Assembly: GCA_963922205.1 (NCBI GenBank)
Contig: CAWUHX010000034.1
Span: 1,302,001 to 1,366,000, forward strand
Origin: Romanomermis culicivorax
Taxonomy: Eukaryota; Nematoda; Enoplea; Mermithida; Mermithidae
DNA length: 64,000 nt
Reading direction: 5' to 3'
Both the position numbers and the translations under genes were made by a program. The notes under the pieces are model-generated. The model saw only the letters and a program-made list of their open reading frames with translations. It searched no databases and had not been told where the DNA came from. Each line of letters opens with the position of its first letter. Positions within the stretch are counted from its first letter, which is position 1. Shown one piece after another: positions 3,477 through 49,322 of this stretch.

Positions 3477-3483
3477 TACATGT

Positions 3484-24648: not shown

Positions 24649-25496
24649 TGTAACGCCCAGATGCAGCAGTATCTCAGCTCTCCGCCTAGGCTCTAGAATA
24701 CTTTTTCTTGGTAGGGAAAACGAGCTCCTCAATGATCCAATATGCAGGAAGTAATAGGAAACCAACAACAACAACTACGATAACGATTTCCAAACTCTCA
24801 AATACACGAATTTTCCCGATGAATACACGATTATTTCCCGAAGAACATGTGACTATGAATACAATTTATACCAGAATAAATGGTAACAACGACTGACTTT
24901 TTCATCATGCTTTGCTTCTTTTATACCACTTCTCTAAGCCACGCCTTTACGTCATGGTAGGCCCGCTTCTGTAATTTGTTTTCGGGCCAATTGCTGCTTC
25001 TCTTTACACGCTTCTGTTTACTGTATGATTTATTACCACGCCTTCATGTTTTAGTTTATCCTATGCTTAATTTCCACGCCTACTAATTATTATGTACACT
25101 TCTCCAATGTGATGACGGCTACTGTTCAACTTGAGACTCGCGTCTGGGTTGGGGTTTTTGCATTTTATTACATGGCAGGTGTTTTTAAGACATTGGGGGG
25201 ATACTGTATTTCTTGGGAATGTGCATCTTCAAGTGACTCGAGTGGGTTATAGAAGCGGTGCCAACGTGTGAAATTATTGTGCCATGATTCCTAATGGGGT
25301 TACTAATGGATTTTGGTGTTGGAATGCTCAAAAACAAAGTACTTATACAATACTTGAAAAAAATGTACGGGAGCATCAACAAGACGGAAAACCAGACACA
25401 CTTGAAAATACGTCACGAGAATGAAATTATATACAGTAATATGATCTACATTTTATACATTATGAATTTACACTAATTCTTATCACTTATCTTACA
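24649..25496 (-). repeat. Element B: 3' LTR
   Basis: Bounded by TGTAACGCCC at the left and TCTTACA at the right, giving a TGTAA...TTACA inverted terminal pair, 848 bp. A polypurine tract (on the minus strand) abuts its inner edge, the position required for the 3' LTR of a minus-strand element. On the minus strand a TATAAAATG sequence occurs about 40 bp inside, a plausible TATA box. No second LTR copy is in the window because the element is truncated upstream. Confidence 0.8.
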
Positions 25497-25509
25497 TTTC
25501 CCTCCTTCC
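25497..25509 (-). promoter_or_regulatory. Element B: polypurine tract
   Basis: On the minus strand GGAAGGAGGGAAA lies immediately before the LTR. Such tracts resist RNase H and prime plus-strand DNA synthesis. It overlaps the last codons of the integrase frame. Confidence 0.75.
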
Positions 25510-26760
25510 AAAGTTGAACATCCTCGTTCCAGGGAAATTCGATGAATGGAGGTTTGTCAGACAAGTAAGGCATCTTGGGTGATGAAGAGGAATAGTCTTT
25601 TTTTTGAAAAGTAGGGTGCAGCCAGGAGAAAAATAGGGTGCAATTTTTTTTTTGAAAATAGGGTGCAATTATCAGTGGATGCTCAATTGTGACATTAGGA
25701 TACACGAATCGAATTACTTTGTAGGGGCCATTGTGATGGGGCAAAAATTTGGGTGTTAAACCCTGCTTGCAGGAATGATTTTAGTATAGAACTAGATCAT
25801 CTGGCTTGTAGTTGATTTCATGGGTATTCTTGTTGTATTGAGACGTGTATTGGTTCTGCGCTTTTTGTAAACTTTTCTGAACTGTGGACAGAGCGTCTGT
25901 GAAATGGGATTTAACTTGAAGTGCATAGTCATCAATATCTATCATATAGGAGGTTAGAATGAAATTGAGTGCTGCGTCAGATGGTAAGTTTGGTTCTCGG
26001 GCATGTAAGAGTTCAAATGGGGGGTAGCAGGTGCTATCATTCTTGTGAATATTGATGGAAAAAACTGCTAACAGTAGATAATCGTCCCAATCAGTATGTT
26101 TGGTATTAACGTACATACATATGCATGCAGCCAGGGTTTGGTTGCAGCGTTTCACTTCCCCATTGGCAATGGGGTGATGTGGTTTTATGTGAACTTTTCG
26201 GGTATTACATACTCCCGTGATTCGCATGAATAGGTCAGAGACAAAATCTGATCCAGGATCACAGAGTACGACTTTCGGGGAACCATGCCGCCGGTGGCAT
26301 ACTGGTTACAAATAGATGGGTGATAGTGGCTGCCCTAATGTTGGGGGTTGGAAAAGCTTCCACGTACTTTGTGAAATAGTGAATGAAAACAACAATGAAA
26401 CGGTTTCCATTCATAGTTTGTGGCAATGGGCCGATGCAATCAATACCTACTCTGTGAAATGGTCCGGTGACTTGAATAGGGACAAGACTGGCATGTACTT
26501 TGTGATTTAAAATTTTGTTGATTTGGCATGTGTGACAAGTTTTGCAGTATTCATATACATCTGTGTTCTTTTTGGGCCAAAAATATTTTTGCCGCAGGGG
26601 GTGCAATTTTTCAGGTGAAGCAAAATGAGCCGCGAACTTTCTGTCATGATGGGATGCAATAACACTATGAATTTTTGAGTTTGGGATATATAATTTTGGT
26701 TCATGGACAATAATGCGATAGAGGATGTTGTTTTGTAATGCAAATTTCATCAGGGTTGGT
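25510..26760 (-). pseudogene. pol: Element B: integrase
   Basis: In minus-strand order: zinc-binding HHCC module at about 26,650-26,510 (SHHDRKFAAHF, then CKTCHTCQ), catalytic core with GIDCIGPLP (about 26,430) and the glutamate in NGEVKRCNQTL (about 26,150), then a GPYKVI segment of the GPY/F region (about 25,735). A frameshift near 26,260 splits the core, and other breaks occur near 25,750. The domain order after RNase H is the Ty3/gypsy order. Inactive as it stands. Confidence 0.9.
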
Positions 26761-27420
26761 GGGTGTCTTTGGATGATTTTGGTAAGTATTGCTTGTGTCA
26801 TTGCATTATAATTTTGCAAAGTTTTTCTGTTCTTCTTTCTGCTCAGAAGCTTCAGCATCCAGAATGGCATTGATAATGGATATCTCAGGTCTTGTTTCAA
26901 GTTGCTTGATATCAAAAGAGGATTTTGCCGTGTCGGAGGGGAAATGAGAAATAGCATCAGCATTCCCATTGGCAGTACCTTTCTTGGGACGAATATCGAG
27001 TTGAAACCTAGAAAAAGCCAACCCCCAACATGCAATTCTGGGGGAGGGGTTTTCCTTTTGCAGGACCGCCTGGATAGCAGTATGATCCATGTGAATAATG
27101 ACATGTTGTTGAAAAAGATATAGCCGAAAATGTTTAATGAACTCTACTACGGCAAGGGTTTCTAATTCTGTTATAGGATAGTTGCGTTCTGCAGGTTTTA
27201 ATGCATGACTCCCGAAGGCCATGGGGCGGTCAAGACCTTTGTCATCAAGTTGACTTAGGACTGCACCAATTCCGAGCTTTGATGCAACTGTTTGCAAGAT
27301 AAAGGGTTTGTTAAAATCAGGGTGTTGCAAGACTGGAGCATGGATTAGCGAAGCTTTGAGTTTATCAAATGCATTCTGTTGCTCAGGACCCCATGAAAAT
27401 TCGGAATTCTTCTTTAGTAA
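26761..27420 (-). pseudogene. pol: Element B: RNase H
   Basis: The frame at 27,330-26,806 shows the tether and RNase H fold: HPDFNKPFILQTVAS (the usual acidic residue of TDAS is replaced by valine), IGAVLSQLDDKG, ELETLAVVEFIKHFR, HMDHTAIQAVLQ and GNADAISHFP. The loss of the first acidic residue suggests inactivity. Sequence is closely parallel to the RNase H of element C. Confidence 0.9.
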
Positions 27421-28260
27421 TGCTGTAAGTGGACTAGAGATTTGAGAGCAATTGGGAATGAATCGTCAATAATAAGAGGGTAAGCCTAGAAATGATTTCA
27501 CTTCTTTTGAGGTTTTTGGTGTGGGGATGTCAATAACGGATTTCACTTTGTTTGGATCTGGGGAAATACCCTGTTGTGAGATAACGTGGCCTAAATATTT
27601 GACTTGAGGTTGGCAAAATTTGCATTTCTGTATGTTGAGCTTTAATCTTGCTGTGGCAAAACGGCTGAGGATAATGTCTAGGCGCTTTATCATTTAAGCA
27701 TGTGATTCCACAAAAACTGATACATCATTGAGGTAAATGAGCCCTGTATTCCATTGTAGCCCGGAAAGTATAACATCCATTAAGTGTTGAACTGTCAGGG
27801 GGCGTTTGTGAGGCCAAATGGAAGGATATTAAATTGGTGTTAACCTGCCGAGCAGTTAAAGGCAGTTTTTTTCTCTGTGATTTTCTGCAATGAGGATCGA
27901 ATAATATACATTGGATTGGTCAAGTGAGGTGAAGTATTTCATCCCACCCAGGGTGTCTAGGATTTCATCGATTCGAGATAATAGGTATGTGTCCTTCTTT
28001 GTTACCTTATTCAGGCCTCTAAAATCGATGCATAAGAGATGCCTACCATCTTTTTTTGGAACAAGAACTGTTTTGGTACACCAAGGGGAATTGCTCCAAC
28101 TAATTACACCAGCTTTCTCAAGTTGTTCAATCTCTGCTTTGATGATTTGTTTTTCTTTTGGGAATGTTCGAAAAAGTGGTCTGCGGACAGGTTTGCAATC
28201 ATTCCTATTGATGCTGTGGGAGACAAGTGTCGTGTGATCCACATCCATTTTTGAGTTAGC
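27421..28260 (-). pseudogene. pol: Element B: reverse transcriptase with YLND active site
   Basis: The Ty3/gypsy RT is recognisable from the entry segment (KPVRRPLFRTFPKEK, about 28,190) through VPKKDGRHLLCIDFRGLN and YFTSLDQSNVYYSI to the LKLNIQKCKF and VKYLGHVIS segments (about 27,650-27,580). The catalytic box reads IYLNDVSVF at about 27,745-27,720: the first aspartate of the YxDD pair is asparagine, which should abolish polymerase activity. A stop follows shortly after it, at about 27,695, and there is a break near 27,850. Confidence 0.9.
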
Positions 28261-28702
28261 CTATTGGGTGGGGTATTTAGATAAGAATCGTATTAGTTCG
28301 TTCTTTTCTGTTTCAGTCAGGTCACTTTAGGTCAAATTGACATTTTCTTTTAACCATGTGAAAGTATCAAAGCGGCCATGTGTGTTTTAAGCAGAAAAAT
28401 GAGGTTGAGTGGATGAGTTTTCTTTCAGCAGGAAACACGAAACAGAGCAGATGCATGTGCAAGGATAGAGGATTTGAGGAGTGCCACAGATGTTTAAAAC
28501 AGAAATGCGGATACAACTATTTTGATTTTGGGGAATGCAAGCGGTGAAAGGAACTTCAGAATTTTGTCTTTCTTTGGGGGTAAATTCGACGGTCAACATG
28601 CAAGTATATTTGGTTGAAGGGTACAGTGAATTCAGTAATAGTGTAGGATGGTAGTTCCAATTTTTTATCCAAATAGGTTCCACCCAGAGTCCACAGAGGG
28701 CT
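28261..28702 (-). pseudogene. pol: Element B: protease-to-RT linker
   Basis: A frame at 28,683-28,387 connects the protease to the RT. It resembles the linker of element C by position and by beta-rich composition rather than by a firm motif. A stop and a frame change separate it from RT. Confidence 0.55.
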
Positions 28703-30235
28703 TTATTCTAAGCCTTCGCAATTGAGTATCACGTTGCCAAACTTGACCTGTGATTTTTGATTATTTATGGTATATTCAGAAAATCGGCTAAGGAAATTTT
28801 TTCCAAAGGATTTTTTCCAATTTTTCCCATCTGCTGTACACTCTTTCTGGACATGTACCATTATTGTTTCTTGTATGGATTGTTCATTTATGGTTACAAA
28901 AGTTGTGCCTATGAAATGGATAGGTTGATTGTCGGCCGCTTTTTCTTGTACGAGTGGGGGTTTCATGTCTAGTTGTAGAATTTCTGCAACACGGGAGTCA
29001 ATCAAGGAATAAACTACACCACTATCAATCATACCTTTTGTGAATAATTTGCCATTCAATGTAAGGGGAATATGGGGGGTATGTTTCTCGGGTATGGCTG
29101 GTTGTGGATTCTTTGACATAGGTGGGTCTACATTATTTATCACTATCAGTTCGATTGCAGGGGTTCTTGGTGTATTCACATCAACAATGACGTATTTCTG
29201 TTGAGATTGAGCTCCACAATGGTTTGCTAATTCCAGGACGGCATGACCAAATGAGGGAGGGATAGTGTTGGATAATCGCCCATTGTGCAACGGCAATTCG
29301 TATGCATTTTTATTAGTTATGTGATGCCTAAGGCATTTGAATTGTTTTCGAAAGAAAAGTAGAGAATGGAAAACACCTGCTATAACAACAATGATAACAG
29401 CTAGGTTGATGAGGATTTGCAAAGGGACTTTTAGTAAATTGTTTAACCCATCAGTTAGACTTTGTGTTGTGCCCATTATTGAGTGTTCCATGCCTTGACT
29501 GGCACTGGACAGTGTATTGCTGATTGCTTGACCACAGCCCGATATCATGCTGTAAAGTGTATCCGAATTCAGTGACGTTTGGGCAGTGTAATTAATGAGT
29601 TTCTTAACGATTCCCTCGAGGGTATGTGTTTTGTACATATATTGTTTCAAGAAGATTAAGTTTGTAGGAATTGTTGCGAATTGATCATAAAAAATTGGTG
29701 GTGTATTAAAGTGGAAAAACGAAAAATTTTGGTTCCAAATGATTTCCAAGGGGAGATCTGTTACATGTGGGGATCCTGTTTCACTGAACCAAATTGTATT
29801 TTGTTTGTAAAGGGCAACATGCATGTGGTTACAGTCGTCAGTTTGGGCGAAAGGGGTTAAATTGTTTCCACCAGGGTTTGAGAACACGATTTCATTTCCC
29901 ACAATAACAGGTAAGAGCTTGTAGCATATTCCATTGACTTTGTGATTATAGAAGACTTTTGATGCATTGACTGGCTTACAAGACCAAATGGTGAGGGCGT
30001 CTCCTGTGAATTCCGCAATTATGTCAGTTCTTTGCAAAAATTCCCAGGCCCCAAGGGTTGCATTGAGACATAGGATCTGCCAGACTAGGTCAAGATGCCT
30101 TTGAGCTTACCGACATAGTTCATTCCAATCGTTTTTAAAATTTTGGATTTTGAATTCTAGAATTTTGTCAGTTAGATAATTTAGTTTTGCAGTGATGGGT
30201 AAAGTAAACAGTGGTACAGTAAACAGTACTTTTTC
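28703..30235 (-). pseudogene. Element B: envelope-like glycoprotein fused to retropepsin
   Basis: One frame of about 444 codons (30,037-28,703), with homologous sequence further upstream to 30,235 broken by a stop at about 30,108. Residues 1-200 look like the C-terminal half of a viral-type ectodomain: paired cysteines, a CYKLLPV motif (residues 38-44), N-glycosylation sites, and a helical run (about 120-200) before a transmembrane segment (about 206-229, ILINLAVIIVVIAGVFHSLL). A polar tail leads to an aspartic protease domain: MIDSGVVYSLID (residues 336-347; DSG instead of DTG) and the FGKNFL segment (411-416) matching the second conserved retropepsin block. RT, RNase H and integrase follow downstream. 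The ORF has no ATG at its 5' end. The CYKLLPV-type pattern reminds me of glycoproteins of chuvirus-like negative-strand viruses; that link is inference. Confidence 0.75.
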
Positions 30236-30866
30236 CCAATCGGATTGAGTCCAGTCTCCATATTTCTTAGCGAATTCAAGCCGTTTTTTCCTATTTTTTG
30301 GCTAATGAACGGCTTTTTGGCAGCAATCAGAGTAGGAAATCCAAGCTTTTTGAGCCGTCTACTGATTGTTGATCTATGAACCAAAGTTCCTCCACCAACA
30401 GAAAGTTCATCTCGTAATGTGGACAGAGATTTTCGACGATTTTCCTCAACTAAATGAACCAAGCATCTATTGTCTCTACTGGTCATTTTCCAGGGTCTTC
30501 CACTTCGCTTACTGTCGGTAAATGTGCAGGTAGAGTTAAACTTTTGTAAAGCGTTACGAACTGCCTGTCTGGGCACAGATAATTGACGTGAAATTTCTTT
30601 TTTCGAAAGTTTTCTAATTGTAAATAGTGATACAATCATTGAACGCTTAGTTTGCAACAAGCTCTTTCATTGACCGATTAATTTACCACGTGCATAAAGA
30701 AACAACCTGAAACGTTTAAATGAAGAAGAGAGCGAACGAAAAAGACCGCAAATGAAAAACACTTGGTTTACAATGACAGATTTTTGTTTTATTTACAATT
30801 TTAATTCGTAATTTGACAAAAATGGCAAATTTGCAGGGGTGGCCTAAACTTTTGCACCTGACTGTA
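30236..30866 (-). mobile_element. Tc1-type transposon fragment (transposase N-terminus)
   Basis: The frame starting at 30,660 is the paired-type helix-turn-helix half of a Tc1 transposase: SKKEISRQLSVPRQAVRNAL, then KRSGRPWKMT, then LVHRSTISRRLKKLGF, and the start of the catalytic domain. Its 5' inverted terminus (TACAGTCAGGTGCAAAAG on the minus strand) ends at the TA at 30,865-30,866. The catalytic two-thirds and the other terminus are missing; the frame runs directly into the envelope-like sequence of element B at about 30,235, so the junction arose by deletion or recombination. Confidence 0.85.
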
Positions 30867-32037
30867 TTTCTTTTTGTTTATCCAATCTGAACGTTTGTTT
30901 GCCATTTTTCCTGCATCACATTAATGACATATGTAGAATGATTAATTAGCATTTTTGTATCAACACGTGCAGACACTTTTTTCTCGGCTTATTTCAACTC
31001 TTTTTGACAAACAGCATAAAAAGTGTTAGAGAGTAAGAATTTTTTTGTATACCTGGATAAAGATGTATTCTGCAGGTTATGAATATTTGGCTACAGTCAC
31101 ATCTGTTATGGGAGTTTGGGGAAGTCTTGACCTCAGCAGATTCTTGCTGACCCCTCCATTCACCAGCATTGACCAAGTAGATTATGAAGGAAAATGAGAA
31201 AAGAAAGAAGAAAAAGACGTCATAAAAATAAAAATTATGCAGGATTTTTCAGAACAAAGTATACTTGATTCCAAAGGGTAATATTAACTTTAACAAGGGC
31301 TGACCAAGCGCATCATAGATTCGCATATTTGACTATATTGGAAGAAATTGCTGCTTGGATGTTAGAAAACCTTTCTTTTGAACTCCTTGAATGGTCGAAA
31401 TATGATTTGTTGTTTATGTATATGCACTGTTTTCGAATCATATAGCCCTATCAAATGTGCCCCCCATCTTTAGAAATTTTTCCAAATAAAAAAGTGACAC
31501 AAAGTATGCTCATAAATTTCCAGTCCTGTATGATATATTGTTTATCTGCAAATCATGAAATCTGAAATACTACTACTTTCACTTTCATTATCTAGAACCA
31601 TTTCAAGAAGAACACGCTAAGCATCAACTTTGATTTTTGATTATCAAGCAATATTTCATTTATAACATCTGTACAATCAGCTGAAAAAAGATGCAATAGA
31701 AAAAATGATATTTTTGAATCCTGATAATCAAGATACATTATACTTGTCCTATGGATATCATTTACTCTAGCATTAATATACTTATGAACATGCGCCACAT
31801 AGTCCTGTCAATTTCATATCTTGTTGGCAGGTTTTAAAGTTTGTACATTGTGTCACAATTTACTGTATCCACTCATGTATATCAGCGAAACATAGTCTGT
31901 ATAGCCACAGCTTTAGTTTTTTGTTCTTTGAGAAGTTTACAGTGAACCAGTTTTTAAGGCTTAGATCTAGAAGCTTTATAGCATGCATTTCATTTTCTGA
32001 AAGTGACATCCTATGTCTCTATACTAACCTTGACATG
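30867..32037. other. No gene seen; MITE remnant
   Basis: About 31,485-31,615 matches the interior of the TAGTCTG MITE (GTGACACAAA, CTGAAATACTACT, CTTTCATTAT) with an internal deletion. The rest of the stretch, up to the LTR of element C, shows no recognisable gene; short frames have no similarity. Confidence 0.5.
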
Positions 32038-33258
32038 TGTCACATCAAGTGGAAAAGTGGTCACTTGTTGAGTGGGGTTTACATCCATATCATGTTGATA
32101 GACAACATGATCCTATCACCATAAATGACAGGCTGCAACCCTGTTAGGAGACTTTTCCTGCTTGTTGGGAACCTAACCCGGCTAGTACTGACTATGGGAG
32201 ATTCCCATAGGTACTCTGATGTTGCTCAGAGGGTACTGCTGTAGAATAATGGACAATGCCACCAGTTTAGGAGTGACAATCCCAGGGTCCTGCTCAGTGT
32301 GAACTGGACAAGGTCATCCCTGAAATGACCCAAACTCTGGGACCTGATTATGAACCGGACAGTCCCTTCTTAGCCCAAACCCGAAAGGAAAGAGCCCTAC
32401 TTATCTGGGGAAAACTGATTCAGGAAGGCTTCCCCAAAATATACCCACAACAACAATGATCCCCTTAGAAGACTCACCTAGTCCTGCTTCTCAACAGTTC
32501 GACGAAGGGCACAGGGTCCGTGGTTGGTGATTTGGTTAATGAACAGGTGGGGGTTCTGACTCGGTTCTCATGAAGGCAAATGATGGAGGCGGGGAGCAAC
32601 TCTCTTTATTCCACGTGTATATGGGTGGTGACCTGGCACAAGGTAGGCAATGGGTGGCTTGTATGCAAATTGGGTGTCAATCACAGTGAAGAATAGGAAT
32701 ATTCAAATTTATTATACTGGATGCAGGGGTGAACCCAGGAAATGAGCTAAAAACTAAAGAAACATGTTGGCTACAGCACCAGCCTGGGCGGAGTTTTTGA
32801 TGCCCAAGCTAACTTCTGCAGCTAGATGCAATGCAGAAGATGCCTATGAGTACATAGACATTTTTTTGTTTGCATGCATTTAGCATTGAGGGGACTGTCA
32901 GTGCCTATGCTAAGCATACAAATGTCTTTAGCTAAACTTCTTAGCTATTCATTTTTGCATAACAAAAAGGACACTGATTTAGGTGATAAGAGGTGCATGG
33001 AATGCACTTAAAATAGCCATGTGCCCATGAAGCACGTTTTGGCCGAAGTTTTAGCTAAAGGGCATACTGTAGCCCATGTGCATAAAAAGAAACAAAATGG
33101 ACAAAAATACAATAAAATGAAACATAAAAATGCATGTGCGAAAACAATAAATGAAATGAACATAAAGTAAAGGGTTGTAAAACAAAAAGAGACAGAAAAA
33201 ATAAAGTATCAGCATGATGAGAATCACATGACATTGGAGAATTGAGTGGCACATGACA
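32038..33258 (-). repeat. Element C: 3' LTR
   Basis: About 1.2 kb, begins TGTCACATCA and ends CACATGACA on the + strand. It aligns along its whole length, at roughly 90 percent by eye, with 44,941-46,211, which is longer by a few small indels (for example near 45,620 and 45,705). TG...CA ends and complementary tips (TGTCA/TGACA) are as expected for LTRs. Confidence 0.9.
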
Positions 33259-33489
33259 AGGCGTTCCTTCAAAAAAGGGCATACTCATGCTTGCTGTGGT
33301 GAGGGGTTACGTGGCATGTCCATGGTGGTTGGTCATTCCTGGTGGTCAGAAAGTCCATTAGATTGTTGGCAGGTGGATCCTCCTCCAGTTGCGGATCTTT
33401 TGACAGTATGTCAAAAGATCCACAAAAGATCTTCAAAAAAAAACGATGTCCTCTTCAGCAAGTGGGGACAATGAAAAGAAGAGCCTCCT

Positions 33490-34611
33490 GATTTAGTGGT
33501 GAGGGACCTCTGCATCAAGATGTGGGTCAATCAAATTTGGTGTAAAGTCCCAGCTTATTGGAGGAAACAACAAGGGTGCCGAATCCACTGCCTGTGAAGT
33601 CAGAGTTGTATCCTCTGCTTGGCTCAGTAGATCAGGGGACACGTAGGGTCGAAGCTGGTTGACATGTACTGTGTCTTTCTGATCTATCTGGAGATGAAGT
33701 GAGACATTGGAATATGCCACACCTGTAACAAGATAGGGCCAATCATAAATGACATCTCATGCTTTGCAGTTTTAGGACCCTGCATAGGCCTCCTGTGATT
33801 TCTCAATTGGACTCTGGATCAAGGTCAAGGCATTGGTGAAATGCCATTTGACCTCAATATCATATGAGGAAATGTTGACAATATGGGCCAAAAGGTTAAA
33901 TGAGAGTGCAGCATCAACAGGCAGCATGGGCATGCGACCATACATGAGTTCAAAGGGGGAGTACCCTTTTGACTCATTCATGCTGATGTTGACAGCAAAC
34001 ACAGCATGTACTATGTTTTCATCAAAATCGATATGTCATTGGTGAACATATATACGTAACCATGTAGCTAGCATCTGATTAGCTCCTTCCACTCCACTAT
34101 TGGTCATTTGATGATAGGGGGTGGAGTGCATTTTCTTCGTTGAACAGATGGCAGTGATTTCAGTCATCAGTTTTGATGTGAAATTGGTGCCACAATCAGA
34201 CTGAAGAATCTGCAGTGCCCCGTGCTTTGCATGACAAAAAGTTGGGTAATGGTTTGCGCAGTAATATCTGGAGTAGCCCAAGCCTTGACCCATTTCATAA
34301 AGTAGTCAATGAAGACAATGATGAAACAGTTGCCAGCTTCACTAGTGGTCATAGATCAAGATGACATCATGATGTGCCCGTATTAGCCAAGATGACATCA
34401 TGATGTGCCCATATTATGGTAGTAACCATGGATTTAGAAATGACAATCTTGTTGGACTCCTCTGTCCATTTCTGAAGGACATTATTTAATAGATGGTAGC
34501 CATCAAGATCATTCTGATTGCCCAAGGGAGTGATCTAAGAACGGGGGCTAGTTCTGGATCATCAAGTTGAGCTGCAAGAAGGTCTAGGAGCTGGGCACCT
34601 ACAGATATCCC
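33490..34611 (-). pseudogene. pol: Element C: integrase (zinc module missing)
   Basis: Catalytic-core pieces in order: FIIVFIDYFMKWVKAWATPDITA (starts about 34,335), the second aspartate segment LQSDCGTNF (about 34,200), the glutamate region NSGVEGANQMLATW (about 34,100), and NISMNESKGYSPFELMYGRMP (about 33,995). The typical end, VHVNQLRPYVSP, is at about 33,660. The HHCC zinc module expected upstream is not seen; instead there is a short direct duplication (about 34,345-34,425). Frameshifts near 34,040 and 34,290. Confidence 0.85.
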
Positions 34612-35160
34612 TCAGGCCGGGTGCTCTGCACCAGCCGTGATCATCATCATATGTCCCTCAGGTCTGTAGAGTGTAGTATCATTAATACTCTGACCAGTGA
34701 GAAAAGTCAGATCTGGCAGGTGTGATAATGCTTCAGCATTACCATTAGATGGACCTTTTTGCAGCTGAATTGTCAGTTGGAATTCAGCAAGCATGAGTCC
34801 CCATCTTGTGATCCGAGCAGAGGGCTTCTCCAACACTGCTTTGACTACTGTATGGTCAGTCTGAACGACAACCTCCTGTCGAAAGAGGTAGGGCCAAAAG
34901 TGCTTGATGAATTGGACAACAGCGAGAGTTTCCAACTCCCTATTGGAGTAATTTTTCTCAGCCACTGTTAACCCTCCACTGGCGTACATGAAAGAATGGT
35001 CATGTTTGTCTTCATCTGACTGGCTCAAAACTGCTCCTATCCTGGAAATACTTGCATCCTTCTGGAGAGTGAAGGGTTTCATAAAGTCCCAATAGTACAG
35101 AATAGGAGGGTTGGTTAGCAATTGTCGGAGTTCCTTAAACGCCTCCTGCTGAGGTTTTTA
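34612..35160 (-). pseudogene. pol: Element C: RNase H
   Basis: Frame 35,121-34,612 reads as a gypsy-type RNase H: PFTLQKDASISRIGAVLSQ (acidic residue kept), NRELETLAVVQFIKHFWPYL, VQTDHTVVKAVLEKP, QKGPSNGNAEALSHLP. It runs parallel to the element B domain throughout, showing a shared origin. Confidence 0.9.
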
Positions 35161-36100
35161 CCACTGGAAAGTGATTTCCTTTCATAAGAGCTTGGTGAGT
35201 GGCTCCCTGAGCTGGGCACAACCAGGTATGAAACGCCTATAGTAAGACATGAGGCCAAGGAAAGACTTGATGCCTTTGTGGTTCTGTGGAATGGGTAGAT
35301 TTAGGAGGGCAGCCAGTTTGATTTTATTGAGTTCAAAGCTGCTCTGTGAGATGCGGTAGCCTAGATCTCTACCTCAGAGTATGAGAATTTGCATTACTCA
35401 ATCTGAGCTTCATTCCACCCTAGGGAACCCGAGAGAACACATCTGCCAGGTGCTCAAGCATTTGGGTGTGAGAGTGACTCAACACCAATATGTAATCCAG
35501 ATAGGTCAGAATTATTCACCATTGGATTCCTGTAAGGAGTAGGTCCATGAGGCCTTAGAACATCCCAGGTGTGTTGCACAGACCAAACAGCAGATAGTTG
35601 AACTCGTAAAGTCCAATGGGCGTATTGAATGCCATCTTCTCTTTATCTGCCTCAGCAATCACTATTGACCAGTAGGCTTTAGCCTGATCAAGGGTAGTGA
35701 AGTATTTCATACCCATGAGTGTGTGGAGGATGTCATGGATCCATGGGAGAGGGTAGACATCCTTTTTCATGACCTTGTTAAGATGGCAAAAATCGACACA
35801 CATACAGTGTGAACTATTTTTCTTTTGCACTAGGATGGTATTACTGGCCCATGGTGACATGCTCAGCTGGATAATACCTTTCTCTTGGAGTGCCTTGACC
35901 TTCTGCATGATGAGATTTTTTCCTTAGGTGAGGACCAATAAGGAAAATTGCATACTGGGTGGGCATCATCCATGCTGATCATGTGCTGAACCACATCAGT
36001 GGAACCTGTGTCCTTTTCATCAAGAGCATAGAGGTTTGTGTATTCATCCAGTAGGTCAAGCAATGCTGCCAGTTCCCGAGGGGAGACATTTGGTGAGATT
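35161..36100 (-). pseudogene. pol: Element C: reverse transcriptase with YLDY active site
   Basis: RT begins near LLDEYTNLYALDEKDTG (about 36,060) and continues through VQKKNSSHCMCVDFCHLN, YFTTLDQAKAYWSIVI and FNYLLFGLCNTPGMF (about 35,560). The catalytic box reads TYLDYILVLS at about 35,505-35,475: the second aspartate of YxDD is tyrosine, so polymerase activity is lost. Stops at about 35,550 and 35,410 and frameshifts near 35,880 confirm decay. Confidence 0.9.
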
Positions 36101-36399
36101 TCAGCATTTTCTTCGACCCATTTATGGTTGAGGATGTTGTCTGATGCGACTGGTGATCCCTGTGAGGGCCCACAATGCATCTGTACATCACCAATGGTCA
36201 TGTGCAGGTAGAGAACCACAGAGTGTGTATTTGGGTCAACTACTTGTAGTGGTATGGAACTGTTGGTCACAGTACTCACACTACCGGCAAAATATATGTT
36301 TCGGTGAGATCCCATGGGGTACTTTCGGATTAAAGCAACCTCAGGTAGTTTCATATAGATTGGATGTACAAGGACAGTGAATCATGTCAGCAAGCGAGG

Positions 36400-36860
36400 T
36401 TCAAGAACCACTAGATCCTCCAGGGGCAAGGCGCCACAGGCAGAAGTGGGGGTTGTGGATGAGACCATCACATGGGATTTTACTCTCCTTGAACTGGAGA
36501 AACGAATTCTCCCAGTTCAAGCTCACACAAATGAACTGTCTGAGGAAGTTTGCTCCGAAGACCAGCTCAGCTGAACAATTCCCCTGTATCTGGACCTGGA
36601 TCCATTCAGAGACATCAGCTACTGTGACCATGATGTAGGCTGCACTTAGCAGTTGGATCGGGACCTGTTTGCTGCTATGGGGCGAGTCCTAGTCTGTGTG
36701 TGCATCAAGTTGGGCAGCTTGGCCACTAACTTGTGGTCCACGAGTGACAAAACAGCTCCTGTGTCAACCAGTGCCTTGGCTTCTACCCAGTTGTTCAGGA
36801 GAACTTTAATATGGGGTGTCCCCATATCATTGGGGTAGAAGACTGATACCATATGACTTG
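36400..36860 (-). pseudogene. Element C: retropepsin domain B
   Basis: Aspartic protease of retroviral type. NWVEAKALVDTGAVLSLVD at about 36,790-36,735 holds the catalytic DTG, and the second conserved block LVFGANFLRQF lies at about 36,560-36,530 in a neighbouring frame. In position and sequence it corresponds to the protease of element B, and the RT linker and RT follow. Broken by a frameshift near 36,640. Confidence 0.8.
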
Positions 36861-36862
36861 GA

Positions 36863-37790
36863 TCAGATGTGGTGGCACCCAGAGTGTGCTCTGTTGGATG
36901 GAATCACTTTGGAATCTGCAACCTGGTGCAATGGAGTAGACTTACAAGAGCATAGCTGATGGTTGGATCTGGGGAAGCTGGGACTATCTTGGACCATGAG
37001 GACATGGTCAGGGCGATTCCTGGGGCTTTGTGTACCCCCTAGTGACTCAATCTCTGTGTCTGACAATAGTGGCGTTCTCATACCATGTGATGCTGGGGCA
37101 TCTGAGTCACTTACCTCCCAGAACTGGTTCTTCTCTAGCATAACTGGAGAGGTTCCAGGTGAGGGTGGCAGGCAACTGGACCTTTGAATGATCAATGATA
37201 GATGACTTGCATGCCTGGAAGAGGTCCAGTATCCTCTGGTTGACCCAGGTGATGAGGTGAGGGAGGATGCACCTGAGGGTGGCCTAGAGATGGATGAAGC
37301 CTGTGACCTGGATGGTGACCTGGACCATTGGGAGGTCCTTGATAGTGAACCTGTATTCTCCCACAAGGGTTCAATCTGGCTGATCTCTGGTGATGTCAGC
37401 AGGAGGGGCAGTTCTACCACATCCAACTGACAAACAATACATTGGTAGTCAAACATCTTGAACTGTTCAAGGAAGTTCAGTCCAAGGATTAGGTCAACTG
37501 GTGCCCAGAAGGGAGATGTTGTCTTGCACACACAAAGGTGGACATTGATGCATGTGTTCAGTTGATGATCAGCAGGCAACTTGATTTCATACTGTCCCGA
37601 GAAGAGGGTATGAATAGCCTTCCCATTGGTGCTCATCAATGGGAAGACATCCTGGTGCTGCTGGAATGCCATAGCTGCTCGTGGGCTAAGGCCTAGTGAA
37701 GATGCTGGCTAACGAGAGTCTCTGGGCAACCAGTGTCAAGGAAAATAGGAGTTTCCTTGGGATTCAACAGGACATCGAAGCATGGAGTGA
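36863..37790 (-). pseudogene. Element C: extra retropepsin domain A plus serine/proline-rich linker
   Basis: A second protease-like domain lies between the envelope-like gene and domain B. A FLDTGCPETLVSQHL segment at about 37,743-37,700 gives the DTG and flanking strand; about 90 residues later VDLILGLNFLEQFKMFDYQ (about 37,500-37,445) is a textbook ILG block. A stop and frame change lie between them near 37,690. The frame continues to 36,863 as a serine/proline/arginine-rich linker. Spacing of DTG to ILG is normal for retropepsins. Element B has no counterpart here, so this looks like a gained or retained second protease. Confidence 0.7.
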
Positions 37791-37953
37791 TTCATTCATA
37801 CTGCGATGGCATCTCCTTTTGCACGTAGTGAAAACTGACCCAGCAGTGGGCTTTGTGGAGAAGTCCCATTGGGGACAAATGGCTAACAAACTGGACCTGT
37901 TTGCTCCTCAGGCGATAGCTGAGGTAGTAAAATACACCCAGATAGGCTAGGTA

Positions 37954-39260
37954 TCAGATACCAACCAACATCAGAGGTTTAAAGATCAACTCAACCAGTC
38001 TGCTCAGAACAGCATGCAATCCCTGAACGATTTTATGTTGTTGACCAGTAATCAAATGGTTTGCTGCCAAACTGACACCTTCCAAGGAGGCCTTGATGTC
38101 ACTTCCTACCCCTGCAAAAGCTGGGTAGATAGCATCTGGTTGCAGGGGTAGACCAGCAGTAAAATTTACCAGCTGGTTTAAAACTGTCTCAACTTGCTCA
38201 GTCTTGTAAATGTACTGTTTAAAGAAGGCAAAGTTTGAAGAGGTCATTGCCAACTGGTCATGAAACAGCGCCAGAGCATCAAAGTGAGTGACGTTAAAGC
38301 ACTGCTTCCAGAAGAGTTCCAGTGGGATGTGGCTCACATGGACCTTGCCAAACTCAGTAAACCAATCCAAGTGATTTCAGAAAATCCCTGTAAAGTGGTG
38401 ATCACATAGCACTATTCGGCTAGATTTAATGAGATCTGGGCCAATGGGGGTGGTGAAAAAAAAGGTACCCCCAACCTGCACAGGTAGATACTTGTAGCAG
38501 ACATTTCCCACCCAGTATGAGTGGTAGACGTAGGTGGCCTTGACTTTTGACACGGCCATATCATCAGTGCATCACCTGTGAATTCCGCCCACAGGTCATT
38601 CTGCTAGAAGAATGCCCGGGCACCGAGGCTAGGGTCAAAGTGAAGCAAGTCAGATCAAGGTTGACCTGAGAGCAGAGCTCAAGCCATCTGAACTGTAAAC
38701 CATTGATTTCTGACTCCTTCATCTGCTGAGCAAGATAGTTCAGTTTGACATTGACAGGATGGGGATGTGAGTCCTTTACCAATCAGAACATGTTTTGGGT
38801 CAAATTATATCTCCCGTCGATGCATAGGAGAAGACCCTGCACTGTCCAGACTGTTGTGGAATGTAGTTCTGGGCACAGTCAGAAGAGGTGGGAGTTTCCT
38901 GGGATCTTGAGGGCAACCTGAAGATCATCAATGATGATGTGGTTCCCTGACATAGATGCAGTATACTTTCCCTTGTGGAGATAATGACACCACTCTGTAA
39001 AGTTTTGAGCAGGCCAGACAATGACACCTTCTAGGGTAGTGCACTGACCCACAGTGAGACTGCATCAACCTACATCTCCTAATGTACTTAGGGCTGTAGT
39101 GCCATCCCACAAAGCAATTTGTCCCTCTTCTATGAGAAGGTTAGTCACTGTCTTGCAGACATCAGTGCAGCACCATTCATACATCACTTCCAATGTTTGG
39201 TTCGTGCTATGAAAGCCAGGGCGGTTACCAATGAGCCTTTGTGAGCCAAACATCTTAGTG
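37954..39260 (-). pseudogene. Element C: envelope-like glycoprotein
   Basis: Several frames on the minus strand together parallel the element B envelope-like region. From 39,253 down: an N-terminal ectodomain part with several cysteines (CCTDVC, about 39,170; WCHYLHKGKY, about 38,980), a central part shared with element B (VKLNYL, about 38,750; AEFTGDAL, about 38,590), a CYKYLPV motif (about 38,500), and the helical run FFKQYIYKTEQVETVLNQLVNFTAG (about 38,220-38,150) before a hydrophobic anchor (about 37,990-37,960). Stops and frame changes near 38,800, 38,630 and 38,375 disable it. It is positioned downstream of gag and upstream of the proteases. Confidence 0.7.
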
Positions 39261-40930
39261 TGATGTGCAAGCCTGCAAGCCGCTGGGGCTAGGTGCTGAG
39301 TGGTGATGATGTCTGCAGTGATGTCACTAGAACCGAAGAAACCAGTGTTGGTCTAGACTCTACAGTTGCACAATTTGCATTTTCACGCTGTTGTTGTAAT
39401 GGGGTCAGAACTAGAAACATATACTGTAACATTCATGCATCGTGGACTCCATGAAGAATTCAGAGGTTTACACTCTACTCTCTGAGGTAACTCGAGTGGG
39501 TGTCAGCTTCTTGGAAGACCACAAAATTGATACTGAGGTGCAGGTGCTGCAGAACTCATCCCTAGAAACAGTGATGTTACTACAGTCAATTTTATTATGT
39601 AAAACAACTTTACGAACGCAATTTGAAGGTGTTCACAAATGTTTACAAATCAAGCCAGGTGGGCCTGTTCAAATCTCCTCTTTGTTGCTCTCGGACGATA
39701 TCGGCTCCTCTCCAGAGTAGTTGATGACCAAACGGCATGATGGGTGAATCTCTCGGAGAATATCAATCTTCTGCCACCATGGAGCAGTTACAGAGGTGAA
39801 TGGGGACTCGTCAATAATGCTGACATCATCATTGACTAGATGTAGGGCTTCGACAATGGCCATGTTTTCAAGGATGGCTGACTCAGTCATGGCAGCCAGA
39901 GGTGAGCTTTGGGGGTTGCCAGCAATGTTGCAGCCCTTGATGTCATGGTTGCAGGAGGCATGGCAGTGACAGCAAGTGCTTCTGTTGGTGGTGTAGCAGA
40001 AACAGTGAATGTTTCTGCCAGTGGTCGAGGGGCAACAAGCAGGCAAGGGGATCGGGCTGACCTGGTCCATAGTGCGGTGGATGGCATCAACCCCTGGCAA
40101 GGATGACTTCCCATCCAACAAGAACTTCTGGACCGGTGAGGCCTGGATAGTCCCATTGGCCATGAACTCAAGTGCCTGTCAGGTGACATTAGGTTGTAAG
40201 AGTCGCAGCAACAGGGTTACTGTGAGCATGATGTTGGCGGCCATGAGTACTTCAACTTGGGCTGCTTTGTTGAGCAACACCCATGAAGGGTGTGGATATT
40301 TTTTGGCCAGATTGACTGACCCAACCGCCAGCATTGTGTCTTTGACTGGTGATGCATCTGTAAATGAGAAATCATTAAAATCGTGGACTTAGGTGGATTT
40401 CTGGTTTCCAAATCTGGATCACCGGAAGAAGAAGGTAGTGTACCTGTCAGATTCATCAACTTGATCTCATGGGTGACTTCCATTGCTGAGTCTGTTGGAA
40501 TCCCGGGTGGTGGTCCTTGGGCGACGATGCGGGCCGATGGTGCCAGTGAGGTCGCAGCAGTGGCTGGAGAGGAGTTGACAGTCACCAATTTCTTGGGATT
40601 CAGTATGACCCAGCACATTAGCATAGCCAACAAATGGCAGTTCTGTTAACAGGTTCCTGATGACCAGTGTCGCGTATCGTGGCAGTGGAGGTGGTAGGCA
40701 GACATAGATGTTGGTGCCGGTGCCAGAGCCCCTGGAAATGCTGAAAACTGATTACGCAGATGGGATAACACTGTTGTGAAGGATCTGCCAGGTGTTCAGC
40801 AAGTGCGGTAGAGATTGTCGATAGCCCCAATTGCATTGTTATGGTGTAGGGGCTGTGGATATTGGTTTCCCATCCCATTAGGACAGTGATAAGGATTCAA
40901 TTGATTATACACATTTGACCTCTGGGAAGA
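39261..40930 (-). other. Element C: unassigned region between gag and envelope-like gene
   Basis: Minus-strand frames at 40,878-40,618, 40,633-40,217 and 40,163-39,669 are serine/threonine/proline-rich and broken. They may be the C-terminal part of gag or a separate small product. No domain is recognised. Plus-strand frames in the same place are antisense shadows. Confidence 0.4.
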
Positions 40931-42000
40931 TTAATCTGAATTATGATAGTTATTCTCACCTGGATTTGTCGCACTGCACTCCAGACAGGCGGTGGATTGA
41001 TGACAATGTTGGCAGGGCCTATCACATCGATTCATGGTGTGGGCATGCATATGACAAAAGTAACAGGGACCACCATTGGCCGGGTTGTGATTGGGGATGG
41101 TGCCAGTGAAATGCTGGGCCCAGCAATCAGCATGGCTGTGTATGCAAAGTCCATGAAAGGAGCATGTTTGAAGGTGTGCTCCCAACAGGCGCTGGCTGAT
41201 GGGTTGGACTTGCATCAATGGTTGGAAAGACGGCATTAGTGGTTTTGGAGCAGGTGAATGTTGTTTGGCCCTGAGCTTCGCAATGTGGGCCGTGAGCCGG
41301 GCCATCCCCTCCCCTACTGCTGTAAGTGGTGAATCTCATCGACTAAGGCTGATGATGATGGCTGAGCAATGCCCGAGCAACCATTGGCCTGATGATTCCA
41401 CATATCCGGATTGAATCTGGTCATTTTATGTTCTGAAGAGAAAACAGCATTAGATGGAGCAGTGTACCAAATCCCTGAGGACAGGCTTTAACCCTCTTAG
41501 GAAGGTAGGTTTAATGATGGAGTCTGACATCCATCCCCAGATTTGGATACACTACCTTAGATAATCTCTTGAGGTGCTCAAGGTAGACTGTTGCTGATTC
41601 AGTCAGCTTCTGCAGGTGATCTTCGATCAGCCCCTGAGGCAGATCTGAGTCACGCCCTACTGGAAAGTCTTTCTGTAGAAAAGCCATAAACTAGTCGTAG
41701 CAGGTACGTTGTGGAGTACTACTCCTAAAGTCCTGGTAGGAGGCAAGAGCAGGACCCATAAGGCACAACTCCAGAAATGTGATTTTATATGAGTAGTCCA
41801 TTTTGTTTACACCCTATACACTCGATCTGTGATGGGAGATCAGTCTCTGACTTCATATCCGAGAATTTGTTCTTCCGTAGGATGGCTAGAACTGACTTTC
41901 TTGCTTGTAAAGCAATTTTATTGAATTGAATAGAGAGAGGCTCACTGGTTTGTACAGACTGGGTAAGGAACAATGAGGTGTCTCTGTTGTGTGAAAGAAA
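40931..42000 (-). pseudogene. gag: Element C: gag (capsid and zinc-knuckle nucleocapsid)
   Basis: The nucleocapsid frame (41,305-40,931) contains a [14 protein letters not shown] motif common in LTR-retrotransposon gag, then a canonical CX2CX4HX4C knuckle [14 protein letters not shown], directly followed by a CQHC...CLEC cysteine cluster. Upstream (about 41,790-41,500) a capsid-type helical region is recognisable, for example VYLEHLKRLSKVVYPNLG (about 41,590-41,535), with several stops. Gag forms the particle and packages the RNA. Finding gag right of the envelope-like gene on this strand fixes the element order. Confidence 0.75.
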
Positions 42001-44940: not shown

Positions 44941-46211
44941 TGTCACATCACGTAGCAAAGTGGTCACTCATACCATATCATGTTGATAGACAACGTGATC
45001 TTATCACCATAAATGACAGGCTGGAGCCCCATTAGGAGACTTTTCCTGCTTGTTGGGAACCTAACCAGGCTAGTACTGGCTATGGAAGATTCCCATAAGT
45101 ACTCTCATGTTGCTCAGAGGGTACTGCTGTAGAATAATGGACAGCACCACCAGTTTAGGAGTGACAATCCCAAGATCCTGCTCATTGTGAATGGGGATGA
45201 GGTCATCTGTGAAATGGCCCAAACTCTGGGACCTGATTCTTAACTAGACAGTCCCTTCTCAGCCTCAATCTGAAAGGAAAAAGCCCTACTTGTCTGGGGA
45301 AAACCGACTCAGAAAGGGTTCCCCAAAATATACCCACAACAACAATAATCCCCTGAGAAGACTCACCTAGTCCTGCTTCTCAACAGTTTGACAAAGGGTG
45401 ATGAGGTCCCTGGTTGGTGATTTGGTTGATGAACGGGTGGGGGTTCTGAATTCCAACTCAGTTCTCAACTGAAGGCAAATGATGGAGGCTGGGGGGGCAA
45501 CTCTCTTTATTCGACAAGTATATGGGTGGTGACTTGGCACAAGGTAGGCGATGGGTGGCCTGTATGCAAATTGGGCGGCAAGCACAGTGAAAGATAGGAA
45601 TATTCAAATTTATTAAAATAATAAAGGCGGCAGACGCAGGAGCTATAAAATGAACCGGATGCAGGGGTGAACCCAGGAAATGAGCAAAAAACTAAAGAAA
45701 CATGTCCTTTTAAGGACTTTGTTGGCTACAGCACCAGCCTGAGTGAAGTTTTCGAAGCCCAAGCTTACTTCTGCAGCTAGATGTGATGCAGAAGATGCCT
45801 ATGAGCACATAGACATTTTTTCGTTTGCATGCATTTAGCACTGAGGCCCTGCAGTGCCTATTCTAAGCAAAGGAACGTCTTTAGCTAAACGTCTTAGCTA
45901 ATCGTCTTTGGGTAACAAAAACGATGCTAGTTTAGGTGATAAGAGGTGCACTGAATGCACCTAAAATAGCCATGTGCCCGTGAAGCATGTTTTGGCAGAA
46001 GTTTTATCTAAAGGGTGTACTGTTGCCTGCATGCATAAAAAAAAACAAAATAAACCAAAATACAATAAAACGAAACATAAAAATGCATGTGCAAAAACAA
46101 TAATTAAAATGAACATAGAGTAAAAGATTGCAAAACAAAAAGTGACAGAAAAAATAAAGTATCAGCATGATGAGAATCACATGACATTGGAGAACTGGGC
46201 AGCACGTGAAA
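44941..46211 (-). repeat. Element C: 5' LTR
   Basis: Homologous along its length to 32,038-33,258 and starting with the same TGTCACATCA. The outer tip (about 46,204-46,211, ACGTGAAA) is slightly altered compared with ACATGACA in the other LTR. No convincing target duplication is readable between 32,037 and 46,212, consistent with an old insertion. Confidence 0.9.
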
Positions 46212-47544: not shown

Positions 47545-47958
47545 CTAGGAGGTGGATGATGCAGCAAGCATTTGAATGATTTCATAATTATGCATAGCTT
47601 GCTGCTTCTTTAAAACATTGATGAATCGGAAAATGTTGGGAAACTGACTGCCGCATGTTGTTTGAAAGCCCCTATGCCAACCTTCAATATTATTATTCAT
47701 ACGATTTTCATTACTAATCGTTCGATTGAACATATTCCAAAGCACAATAGGAAAATTTGGAGGGCGCCTCTGTCTTAGACCACAACGACCAATATAAGTA
47801 TCTTCGAAGTAGTCTGCAATTGGCTGAGCTTGAGCAGGAAAATCTGGATGTTCAACTAGCTGATCAAAAGATTGTTCGACATCGTTTGGTCGCACAAATG
47901 CCAATGCAGGTATCATACACACCCAAATTGCAAATTCATGTGATTGTTGATATTCTAG
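47545..47958 (-). pseudogene. MULE transposase, C-terminal part
   Basis: The protein reads from EYQQSHEFAIWVCMIPALAFVR through DYFEDTYIGRC, the RRPPNFPIVLWNMF segment and NNNIEGWHRGFQTTCG, which are the conserved C-terminal stretches of FLYWCH/MULE transposases. A TTTTTCAG acceptor-like sequence (minus strand, near 47,960) immediately precedes it. The matching upstream half ends at about 49,323. An intron is likely, but the reading phase across a GTAACA donor does not join cleanly, so disruption is also possible. Confidence 0.8.
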
Positions 47959-48099
47959 CTGAAAAACACTTTATGTCATTTATGTCAAATGAAACCATGT
48001 ATACATAGGGTTGCTATGCTTGTTGGCCGATCAAAATAATCCACAATTACATTTAATCACCTATGTAATTTTCAACTAAAATTCAATTGGCAACTAAAA

Positions 48100-48346
<247 letters not shown>

Positions 48347-48787
48347 CAGTTATTCATTTTTTATCTTTAGTTTTTTATTCCTTCTCATATTACCCAAAAT
48401 TTAATTTTCAGGTTCTCTCCTTGACTTTCACTTCGCCCTGTTTCCTCGGTTTCCTTTTTCATTTTTCCACATTTTCTCTTTTGTTTTCCTTTCTGGTTTG
48501 ATACATATTTTCTTTTTCCAGCTTCGTTTCTTGCATTTTTTATCAGAATCTGTGGAGAGAAATTTAGAATATTTCAAAGTATGGCACTTATTCTATGTGT
48601 GACTTTATTGTGCCCTTTACTATTTTTTAATTAAAACTTTGCAGTTTATCAGAAAAGAAATAAAGCAGATGGAACAGAAAATAAATATAAAGAAAAAAGA
48701 AGTAAATGAAAATGAGGGAAAAAAGAAAAAAAATCATAAACAATACTGAAGAAAAAATTAAATAAGATAGAAAAAAGAGAAAAAAGT
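48347..48787. other. No gene; pyrimidine/purine-rich spacer within the MULE
   Basis: TTTTC-rich then GAAAA-rich sequence with no recognisable coding content. Confidence 0.6.
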
Positions 48788-49227: not shown

Positions 49228-49322
49228 AAGTAAACAAAAAAAGGAACAAAAAATAGAAAAAAACAAATGCAAATAGAAGAACATGAGTGACTCACAATAC
49301 CGATTATGATATCCATGTTACA

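What the first reader, a model, noticed from the sequence alone, without database searches (positions are those of the whole stretch)
28703..39260. Two related retroelements carry an envelope-like gene upstream of protease-RT, not after integrase
In element C the minus-strand order is LTR, primer site, gag zinc knuckles (41.3-40.9 kb), envelope-like gene (39.3-37.95 kb), proteases, RT, RNase H, integrase, LTR. Element B, diverged in sequence, keeps the same order from envelope-like gene (30.2-29.3 kb) through integrase and 3' LTR. Shared features include CYKLLPV/CYKYLPV, AEFTGDAL and a helical run before a membrane anchor. In retroviruses, errantiviruses and other env-bearing LTR elements that I know of, env follows integrase. 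Two independent copies with the same unusual order argue for a lineage and against a chance rearrangement. Both copies are decayed.
Basis: partly seen in the sequence, partly recalled or inferred. Interest (0 to 1): 0.87.

Follow-up and report, generated by a model that had tools for sequence, protein, structure and literature searches.

The report
Envelope protein inside a retroelement polyprotein
A mosquito-parasitic nematode carries many virus-like jumping genes whose envelope (cell-fusion) protein is built into the middle of one long protein, between the capsid part and the copying enzymes, instead of following them as the standard description has it.

Summary
The window very probably comes from the mermithid nematode Romanomermis culicivorax (assembly size and scaffold count match). 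Elements B and C are decayed members of two Ty3/gypsy-type families in which a class III-like fusion glycoprotein (GP) lies between Gag and protease-RT-RNase H-integrase. In less decayed copies GP is not a separate gene: it is in frame inside one polyprotein (about 2,486 aa in B-type, 3,092-3,100 aa in C-type). In 8 of 9 B-type copies that frame ends 27-40 nt before the 3' LTR, so no env fits after integrase. Copies are young: LTR pairs 98.9-100% identical, 4-bp target duplications in 8 of 8 readable cases. GP is under purifying selection (piN/piS 0.088; RT 0.039). Two metagenomic proteins from unknown hosts show GP-protease-RT in one chain and join B and C in one RT clade (100/99). My reading: an internal signal segment and a TM helix thread the chain twice through the ER membrane, leaving Gag and Pol cytosolic and GP outside; protease then separates them. 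Architecture and selection are shown; topology, processing and infectivity are inferred. One closely relevant paper (Chary and Hayashi 2025) could not be read.

The parts
24649..25496 (-). Element B 3' LTR (TGTAAG...CGTTACA)
   Evidence: Read by eye; termini resemble B-type LTRs TGTAACG...CGTTACA. No blastn match to the B-type LTR body, so assigned by termini, PPT and position.
25497..25509 (-). Element B polypurine tract GGAAGGAGGGAAA
   Evidence: the same string precedes the 3' LTR in the B-type copies
25568..26840 (-). Element B integrase (H2C2 zinc finger, core, GPY motif)
   Evidence: PF17921 E 1e-14; tblastn 62-65% identity to B-type; NGPY in a ORF (the GPY/F label is recalled)
26764..28708 (-). 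Element B reverse transcriptase and RNase H
   Evidence: PF17919/PF17917; tblastn 68-73%; RVT_1 on the broken ORF below its cut-off
28709..29179 (-). Element B aspartic protease, same frame as GP
   Evidence: tblastn 74%; ORF 28703-30106 is continuous with GP
29273..30199 (-). Element B class III-like fusion glycoprotein, C-terminal part
   Evidence: PF24664 E 2.2e-11; tblastn 77-80%
29354..29422 (-). Element B GP transmembrane helix (approximate)
   Evidence: same residues as the TM of B-type copies; hydrophobic run in the ORF
32085..33198 (-). Element C 3' LTR
   Evidence: direct repeats D1-D5; 86-88% identical to the 5' LTR
33643..34986 (-). Element C RNase H end and integrase, decayed
   Evidence: tblastn 38-68%
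34984..36453 (-). Element C PR-RT linker, RT and RNase H, decayed
   Evidence: PF00078 E 7e-7, at its cut-off; tblastn 30-54%
36461..36819 (-). Element C protease (LVDTGA at 36771), counterpart of the B protease
   Evidence: tblastn 31-48%; motif
37439..37743 (-). Element C extra protease-like piece between GP and PR (FLDTGC at 37743)
   Evidence: motif; in open frame in C-type copies; no Pfam hit
37927..39610 (-). Element C fusion glycoprotein, decayed
   Evidence: tblastn with B-type GP 34-54% and with C-type GP 80-82%
40931..41335 (-). Element C Gag zinc-knuckle region (CX2CX4HX4C)
   Evidence: ORF; in the same long frame as GP in C-type copies; motif read by eye, no Pfam hit
44973..46151 (-). 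Element C 5' LTR

Best explanation
B and C belong to a lineage of Ty3/gypsy-type retroelements that took up a class III viral fusion glycoprotein between Gag and protease and kept it in frame, giving one polyprotein Gag - signal segment - GP ectodomain - TM - protease - RT - RNase H - integrase. Proposed working (inferred): the Gag linker stays in the cytosol, the internal hydrophobic segment targets the chain to the ER, the ectodomain is glycosylated in the lumen, and the TM helix brings Pol back to the cytosol. Two membrane crossings leave both Gag and Pol on the capsid side, so the odd order is topologically sound. The protease next to the TM releases Gag and Pol during budding, leaving GP on the particle as the entry fusogen. 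Capsid, envelope and enzymes would thus be delivered in one chain with no need for splicing or frameshifting.
For: Shown. One frame: of 91 scored B-type matches 48 lie in frames of 2,480 aa or more; of 150 matches to the C protease-like piece 62, and of 150 to C GP 23, lie in frames of 3,042 aa or more (counted). In the C33 copy zinc knuckles, GP, protease-like piece and RT follow in that order on one strand, in phase, in one 3,100-aa frame. Ends: of 9 B-type copies with an LTR pair, 8 have the frame ending 27-40 nt before the 3' LTR and 8 have it open from the first Met into GP. Gag: Retrotrans_gag and three zinc knuckles over cut-off, Ty3_capsid below it. GP: PF24664 over cut-off in 8 GP sequences; BDV_G over cut-off in one (P0006), gB and rhabdovirus profiles below theirs; of 10 PDB profile hits eight are named glycoprotein B and one ORF8, E 0.002-0.034. 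Signal segment hydrophobic in 26 of 29 copies, TM in 29 of 29; 10 sequons in 602 aa of GP, 5 in 650 aa of PR-RT. Selection: piN/piS GP 0.088, PR 0.063, RT 0.039; GP half outside the selecting query 0.084. Recent movement. Other hosts: P0008, P0052. RT clade 100/99.
Against: No transcript, protein or particle data. The charge difference around the two membrane segments is weak in B-type. The structure model was unusable (mean pLDDT 35). The piece with the GP N-terminal half alone (L002:1-1500) and two decayed C fragments gave no Pfam hit. A 1:1:1 Gag:GP:Pol ratio is unusual, so spliced or shortened products may exist and were not tested. GP in P0009 is inferred only from a TM before PR; P0010 and P0014 are too short to show GP, and with them scored as lacking it the tree needs 3 label changes, not 1.
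Confidence: 0.8

Rival explanations
1. The GP region is an unrelated later insertion (an endogenised RNA-virus glycoprotein) that happens to sit in each element.
For: Chuvirus-type glycoprotein insertions outside elements are reported in many arthropods (PMC10084718 passages). GP and RT identities between B, C, P0008 and P0052 do not rank alike (the pair lowest in GP, 37%, is among the highest in RT, 61%), so shared history of GP and RT is not proven pair by pair.
Against: Same position and frame in two families only 44% alike in GP, and in two metagenomic single chains; strong purifying selection on GP.
Confidence: 0.03
2. GP is carried in the long frame but is expressed from a spliced or internally started RNA, and a second spliced RNA joins Gag to Pol without GP; the full polyprotein is a minor product.
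For: Spliced env messages are the rule in retroviruses and errantiviruses (recalled); a 1:1:1 ratio would be unusual.
Against: No frame break, and the signal segment is contiguous with Gag. GP-less copies were not sought and no RNA was examined, so this is open.
Confidence: 0.25
3. The GP no longer serves infection but acts inside the cell, for example as a membrane anchor for assembly or for superinfection control.
For: No infectivity data; Gag linked to a membrane protein would by itself direct assembly to membranes.
Against: Both halves of the ectodomain are under purifying selection, including the part that aligns to gB, and it is rich in sequons and cysteines, as expected if fusion is retained.
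Confidence: 0.12
4. Assembly or rearrangement artefact.
For: Some matches lie in regularly spaced arrays (C180; C17).
Against: Open copies on many different contigs, 8 of 8 readable ones with their own 4-bp duplication; independent metagenomic proteins.
Confidence: 0.01

Closest known systems
Metaviridae / Errantivirus (Ty3/gypsy with env)
   Same: LTRs TG..CA, 4-bp TSD, Gag with CCHC knuckles, PR-RT-RNase H-IN, GPY motif; type III fusion glycoproteins on some gypsy elements are mentioned in PMC13172572 (passages)
   Different: The ICTV profile says Env, where present, is encoded downstream of integrase (PMC7879559, whole text); here GP lies between Gag and PR in one frame
Atlas virus (hookworm Belpaoviridae)
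   Same: Nematode element with one long polyprotein that includes Env (2,828 aa; PMC9094657 passages)
   Different: BEL type, order Gag-Pol-Env, class II phlebovirus-like Gc; here Ty3/gypsy type, Gag-GP-Pol, class III-like
Anakin (BEL/Pao with chuvirus glycoprotein, mosquitoes)
   Same: LTR element with a chuvirus-type glycoprotein (PMC7642597 passages)
   Different: Pao RT. The passages I saw say Gly is downstream of the polyprotein for Roo, Tas and Cer-7; they do not state its place in Anakin
MDG1-group elements with sORF2
   Same: LTR elements coding a membrane protein for cell-to-cell spread (PMC11952523 passages, abstract included)
   Different: A short FAST-like protein in its own small ORF, not a class III glycoprotein in the polyprotein

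Membership tests
Metaviridae (Ty3/gypsy) | LTR-flanked, short target-site duplication | tested here: met
   LTR pairs in 9 of 10 copies; 4-bp TSD in 8 of 8 readable
Metaviridae (Ty3/gypsy) | PR-RT-RNase H-IN order | tested here: met
Metaviridae (Ty3/gypsy) | Retrotransposon capsid and CCHC knuckle | tested here: met
   Retrotrans_gag over cut-off (25.4 vs 24.1 bits), three knuckles; Ty3_capsid E 4e-4, below its cut-off
Metaviridae (Ty3/gypsy) | Env, where present, downstream of integrase (PMC7879559) | tested here: not met
   GP before PR; frame ends 27-40 nt before the 3' LTR in 8 of 9, and earlier in the ninth
Errantivirus | RT inside the errantivirus clade | not tested
   No named errantivirus RT was at hand; the tree holds search hits and window or genome pieces only
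Class III fusion proteins (Monjiviricetes_fusion / gB / G) | Profile similarity over the curated cut-off | tested here: met
   PF24664 37.6-67.2 bits against cut-off 27 in 8 GP sequences; two decayed C fragments and the N-half piece L002:1-1500 no hit
Class III fusion proteins (Monjiviricetes_fusion / gB / G) | Class III fold | tested here: inconclusive
   Model mean pLDDT 35, not searched; profile hits to gB E 0.002-0.034
Anakin | BEL/Pao reverse transcriptase | tested here: inconclusive
   RNase H, H2C2 and RT profiles and the pol relatives look Ty3/gypsy type, but no Pao RT was compared directly
Atlas-type nematode belpaovirus | Gag-Pol-Env order | tested here: not met

The most novel reading that the evidence does not exclude
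An undescribed lineage of Ty3/gypsy retroviruses, spread over several animal hosts, makes its envelope glycoprotein as the middle part of one doubly membrane-crossing Gag-Env-Pol chain. It is still infectious, and the Romanomermis copies reflect ongoing or very recent germline invasion.
Probability: 0.5. Interest if true: 0.88.

Novelty: new variant of a known kind. Interest (0 to 1): 0.76.

Why it matters
The family description places env after integrase; an envelope kept in frame between Gag and protease is a different solution to the problem of making capsid, envelope and enzymes. It poses clear questions: membrane topology of a Gag-Env-Pol chain, stoichiometry without frameshift or splicing, and how protease is kept from acting too early when it sits beside the membrane. 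R. culicivorax has many young copies, so it can be studied in a living host. The metagenomic relatives suggest a broader group, and it adds a Ty3/gypsy case to the repeated capture of class III fusogens.

Tried and rejected
Later-insertion and artefact readings were rejected (see rivals). The Troyka paper (PMC12440569; [quoted passage not shown] The Spuma_A9PTase hit before RT, first taken as a sign of a second protease, also appears in P0046 and P0043 outside the clade, so it seems to mark the PR-RT linker. A profile search found no new GP relatives (the same three); no confirmed relative came from viral contigs (8 pattern matches) or genome contigs (67), and there was no single-sequence PDB hit. 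The structure model was too poor to search. A first selection run used loci that were not all in one orientation and kept 11 of 29; it is replaced. I first took GP and RT identities to move together; one search does not bear that out. A tRNA primer was not identified.

No listed title or abstract start, and no passage I read, describes a Gag-Env-Pol order; most listed papers were not opened, among them the one hit that holds the phrase 'between gag and pol' (a plant Sirevirus paper). Chary and Hayashi, on envelope-carrying retrotransposons of metazoans, is known to me only from citations and mentions in PMC13172572 and PMC12992720 and from vague recall; it may bear on novelty.
Full report
Where it is. 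The window is G000:C34:1302001-1366000 in a 359,112,060-base, 595-contig genome. Those figures equal the R. culicivorax v2 assembly (359.1 Mb, 595 scaffolds; PMC10879605, passages including Table 1). A match of size and count is not proof, but one of the three GP relatives found is an R. culicivorax protein (P0004), and a COI-like stretch on one contig looks nematode-like to me (recalled judgement).

What is in the window. Both elements run on the minus strand. With pieces of less decayed copies as tblastn queries, element B reads GP, PR, RT, RNase H, IN, and then a 3' LTR; element C reads GP, PR, RT, RNase H, IN between LTRs 86-88% identical. B's GP and PR lie in a single 467-codon frame. B stops at about 30.2 kb beside a Tc1-like transposase fragment; its Gag and 5' LTR were not found. 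No B-type Gag similarity was found in C either; C's Gag is recognised by a zinc-knuckle ORF whose counterparts lie in the long frames of C-type copies.

Copies elsewhere in the genome. The B-type query (GP plus PR) gave 91 scored matches of 3,946 candidates; the 90 besides the window copy are 76-77% identical to it, and 48 of 91 lie in frames of at least 2,480 aa. The C GP query gave 150 scored of 2,661 candidates, 23 in frames of 3,042 aa or more; the C protease-like query 150 of 1,043, 62 in such frames (counts). The zinc-knuckle query gave 150 of 1,064 and the C RT query 150 of 6,170. These lists are capped, so they are lower bounds, and many rows sit in shorter, broken frames. In the C33 copy zinc knuckles (1048919), GP (1051976), protease-like piece (1052684) and RT (1054466) follow on the plus strand, differ by multiples of three and share a 3,100-aa frame. 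Of 24 plus-strand copies that I compared between the GP and RT lists, RT starts exactly 2,490 nt after the GP match in 18 and 2,447-2,493 nt after it in the other 6. A PF24664 search gave 68 scored of 2,320 candidates, all 68 over the cut-off, and none in the tool's 14 control genomes.

Anatomy of B-type copies. Ten were fetched in two halves. Nine have an LTR pair (one, L043/L044, only over 301 nt; the tenth, L031/L032, none); identities are 98.9-100%. LTR ends are TGTAACG..CGTTACA, with 4-bp duplications in 8 of 8 readable cases by eye. The frame is open into GP from the first Met at about codon 81 after the LTR in 8 of 9; L049 has a stop in Gag. It ends 27-40 nt before the 3' LTR in 8 of 9; L038 has an earlier stop 502 nt before it. 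So nothing the size of an env gene fits after IN. Gag has retrotransposon-capsid similarity and three CCHC knuckles. It is followed by a proline-rich basic linker, a hydrophobic segment, a cysteine-rich ectodomain, a TM helix, and a protease active-site motif 105 residues on.

What the glycoprotein is. PF24664 (Monjiviricetes fusion glycoprotein) passes its cut-off in eight GP sequences: window B, L002, L054, P0004, P0005, P0006, P0008, P0052. No hit came from two decayed C fragments or from the piece L002:1-1500 with the GP N-terminal half. Bornavirus G passes its cut-off in P0006 only; herpesvirus gB and the rhabdovirus fusion domain match below theirs; all are class III as recalled. A profile of six sequences against the PDB gave ten hits at E up to 10: eight named glycoprotein B and one ORF8 at E 0.0022-0.034, and one ribosomal protein at 0.39. 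The fold was not confirmed: the model has mean pLDDT 35.

Is it used? Among 29 B-type copies, piN/piS is 0.088 for GP (27 of 29 rows kept), 0.063 for PR (29), 0.039 for RT (26), 0.095 for the PR-RT linker (27) and 0.31 for the Gag-GP linker (21); rows over 12% different from L002 were dropped. The loci were picked by similarity over the GP C-half and PR, which could bias those parts down; the GP N-half, outside that stretch, is 0.084 (27 of 29, rows over 15% different dropped). The signal segment is looser (0.40) and the TM 0.16. Window B against L002 gives dN/dS 0.058 in the GP C-half although B is itself decayed; dS there is near saturation (2.1).

How far it reaches. The GP searches returned three proteins: one Romanomermis, one labelled as a gammaproteobacterial MAG (probably animal DNA misbinned; inference), one JGI. 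A search with the PR-to-IN piece gave 5,498 hits among the 7,960 candidates scored, of which the best 120 are listed. Two of these 120, both from JGI metagenomes, carry GP, PR and RT in one chain in that order: P0008 (GP 53-264, PR 469-557, RT 792-952, IN to 1412) and P0052 (GP 272-437, PR 635-726, RT 968-1128). P0009 has a TM at 37-55 just before PR. In an RT tree of 123 rows, B-type, C-type, P0008, P0009, P0052 and the truncated P0010 and P0014 form one group with support 100/99 on a stem of 0.84. The tool counted three changes of the GP label, two of them forced by well-supported branches, because P0010 and P0014, too short to show GP, were scored as lacking it. Inside the group the forks are mostly unresolved, and the C-type row fills only 37% of the columns. 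Between B, C, P0008 and P0052, GP identity is 37-44% and RT identity 56-61%: B and C are as far from each other as from the metagenomic elements, so the lineage is old. The values do not rank alike (P0008-P0052 is lowest in GP and among the highest in RT), and the GP tree is too weakly resolved to test shared history. One uptake before these lines split is the simplest reading, from the shared place and frame, but it is not proven by trees.

Mechanism. Shown: one frame, two hydrophobic segments bracketing an ectodomain rich in sequons (10 in 602 aa; 5 in 650 aa of PR-RT), PR directly after the second. Inferred: ER targeting by the internal segment, signal cleavage, Gag and Pol both cytosolic, PR processing at budding, GP-mediated entry. 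The charge pattern agrees with a cytosolic Pol side in P0052, P0008 and P0009 (+2, +4, +3 after the TM) but is weak in B-type (+1).

Known or new. The ICTV Metaviridae profile places Env downstream of integrase. A single polyprotein with Env exists in the hookworm Atlas virus, with Env last. Chuvirus-type glycoproteins exist on mosquito Pao elements. A 2023 survey found no clear capture by Gypsy elements and reports glycoprotein insertions in Nematoda flanked by simple repeats. [quoted passage not shown] I found no account of the Gag-Env-Pol order in ten full-text searches of open papers, going by titles, abstract starts and the passages read; subscription papers and the Chary and Hayashi study were not readable. 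Hence: new variant of a known kind.

Noticed in passing
P0046 (database protein), residues 1-330: In another Ty3/gypsy line, the RT-bearing protein starts with a basic stretch, a signal-like segment, a short ectodomain with several sequons, and a TM helix, in frame just before the protease motif at 310; it has a further TM-like stretch after integrase. It may be a second, independent membrane module before protease.
   Followed up: partly
window 37743 and 36771: Element C carries two protease active-site motifs, one directly after GP and one before RT; the piece after the first is in open frame in many C-type copies. Possibly a duplicated or tandem protease.
   Followed up: partly
window 30181-30666: Tc1/mariner-like transposase fragment (PF01498) lies where element B loses its 5' part.
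   Followed up: partly
window about 3237-6650: A Ty3/gypsy element on the plus strand without GP similarity (RT 38-40%, IN 29%); frames broken.
   Followed up: no
G000:C180, C17, C2: GP matches repeat at regular spacing (8,365; about 12,180; 8,401 bases); for the B-type spacings this is about one element minus one LTR, as expected of arrays that share LTRs.
   Followed up: no
L047: A second, 87.5% identical LTR-like stretch lies just upstream of the 5' LTR, so an older copy or solo LTR adjoins.
   Followed up: no
G000:C117:992573-993922: A cytochrome oxidase I-like stretch readable by the invertebrate mitochondrial code on a contig of nuclear size: nuclear mitochondrial insert or assembly join.
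   Followed up: no
window 47545-50300: ORF fragments that look like a MULE-type DNA transposon to me (not searched).
   Followed up: no
window 58520-58792: A run of unread bases inside an ORF listed with X.
   Followed up: no
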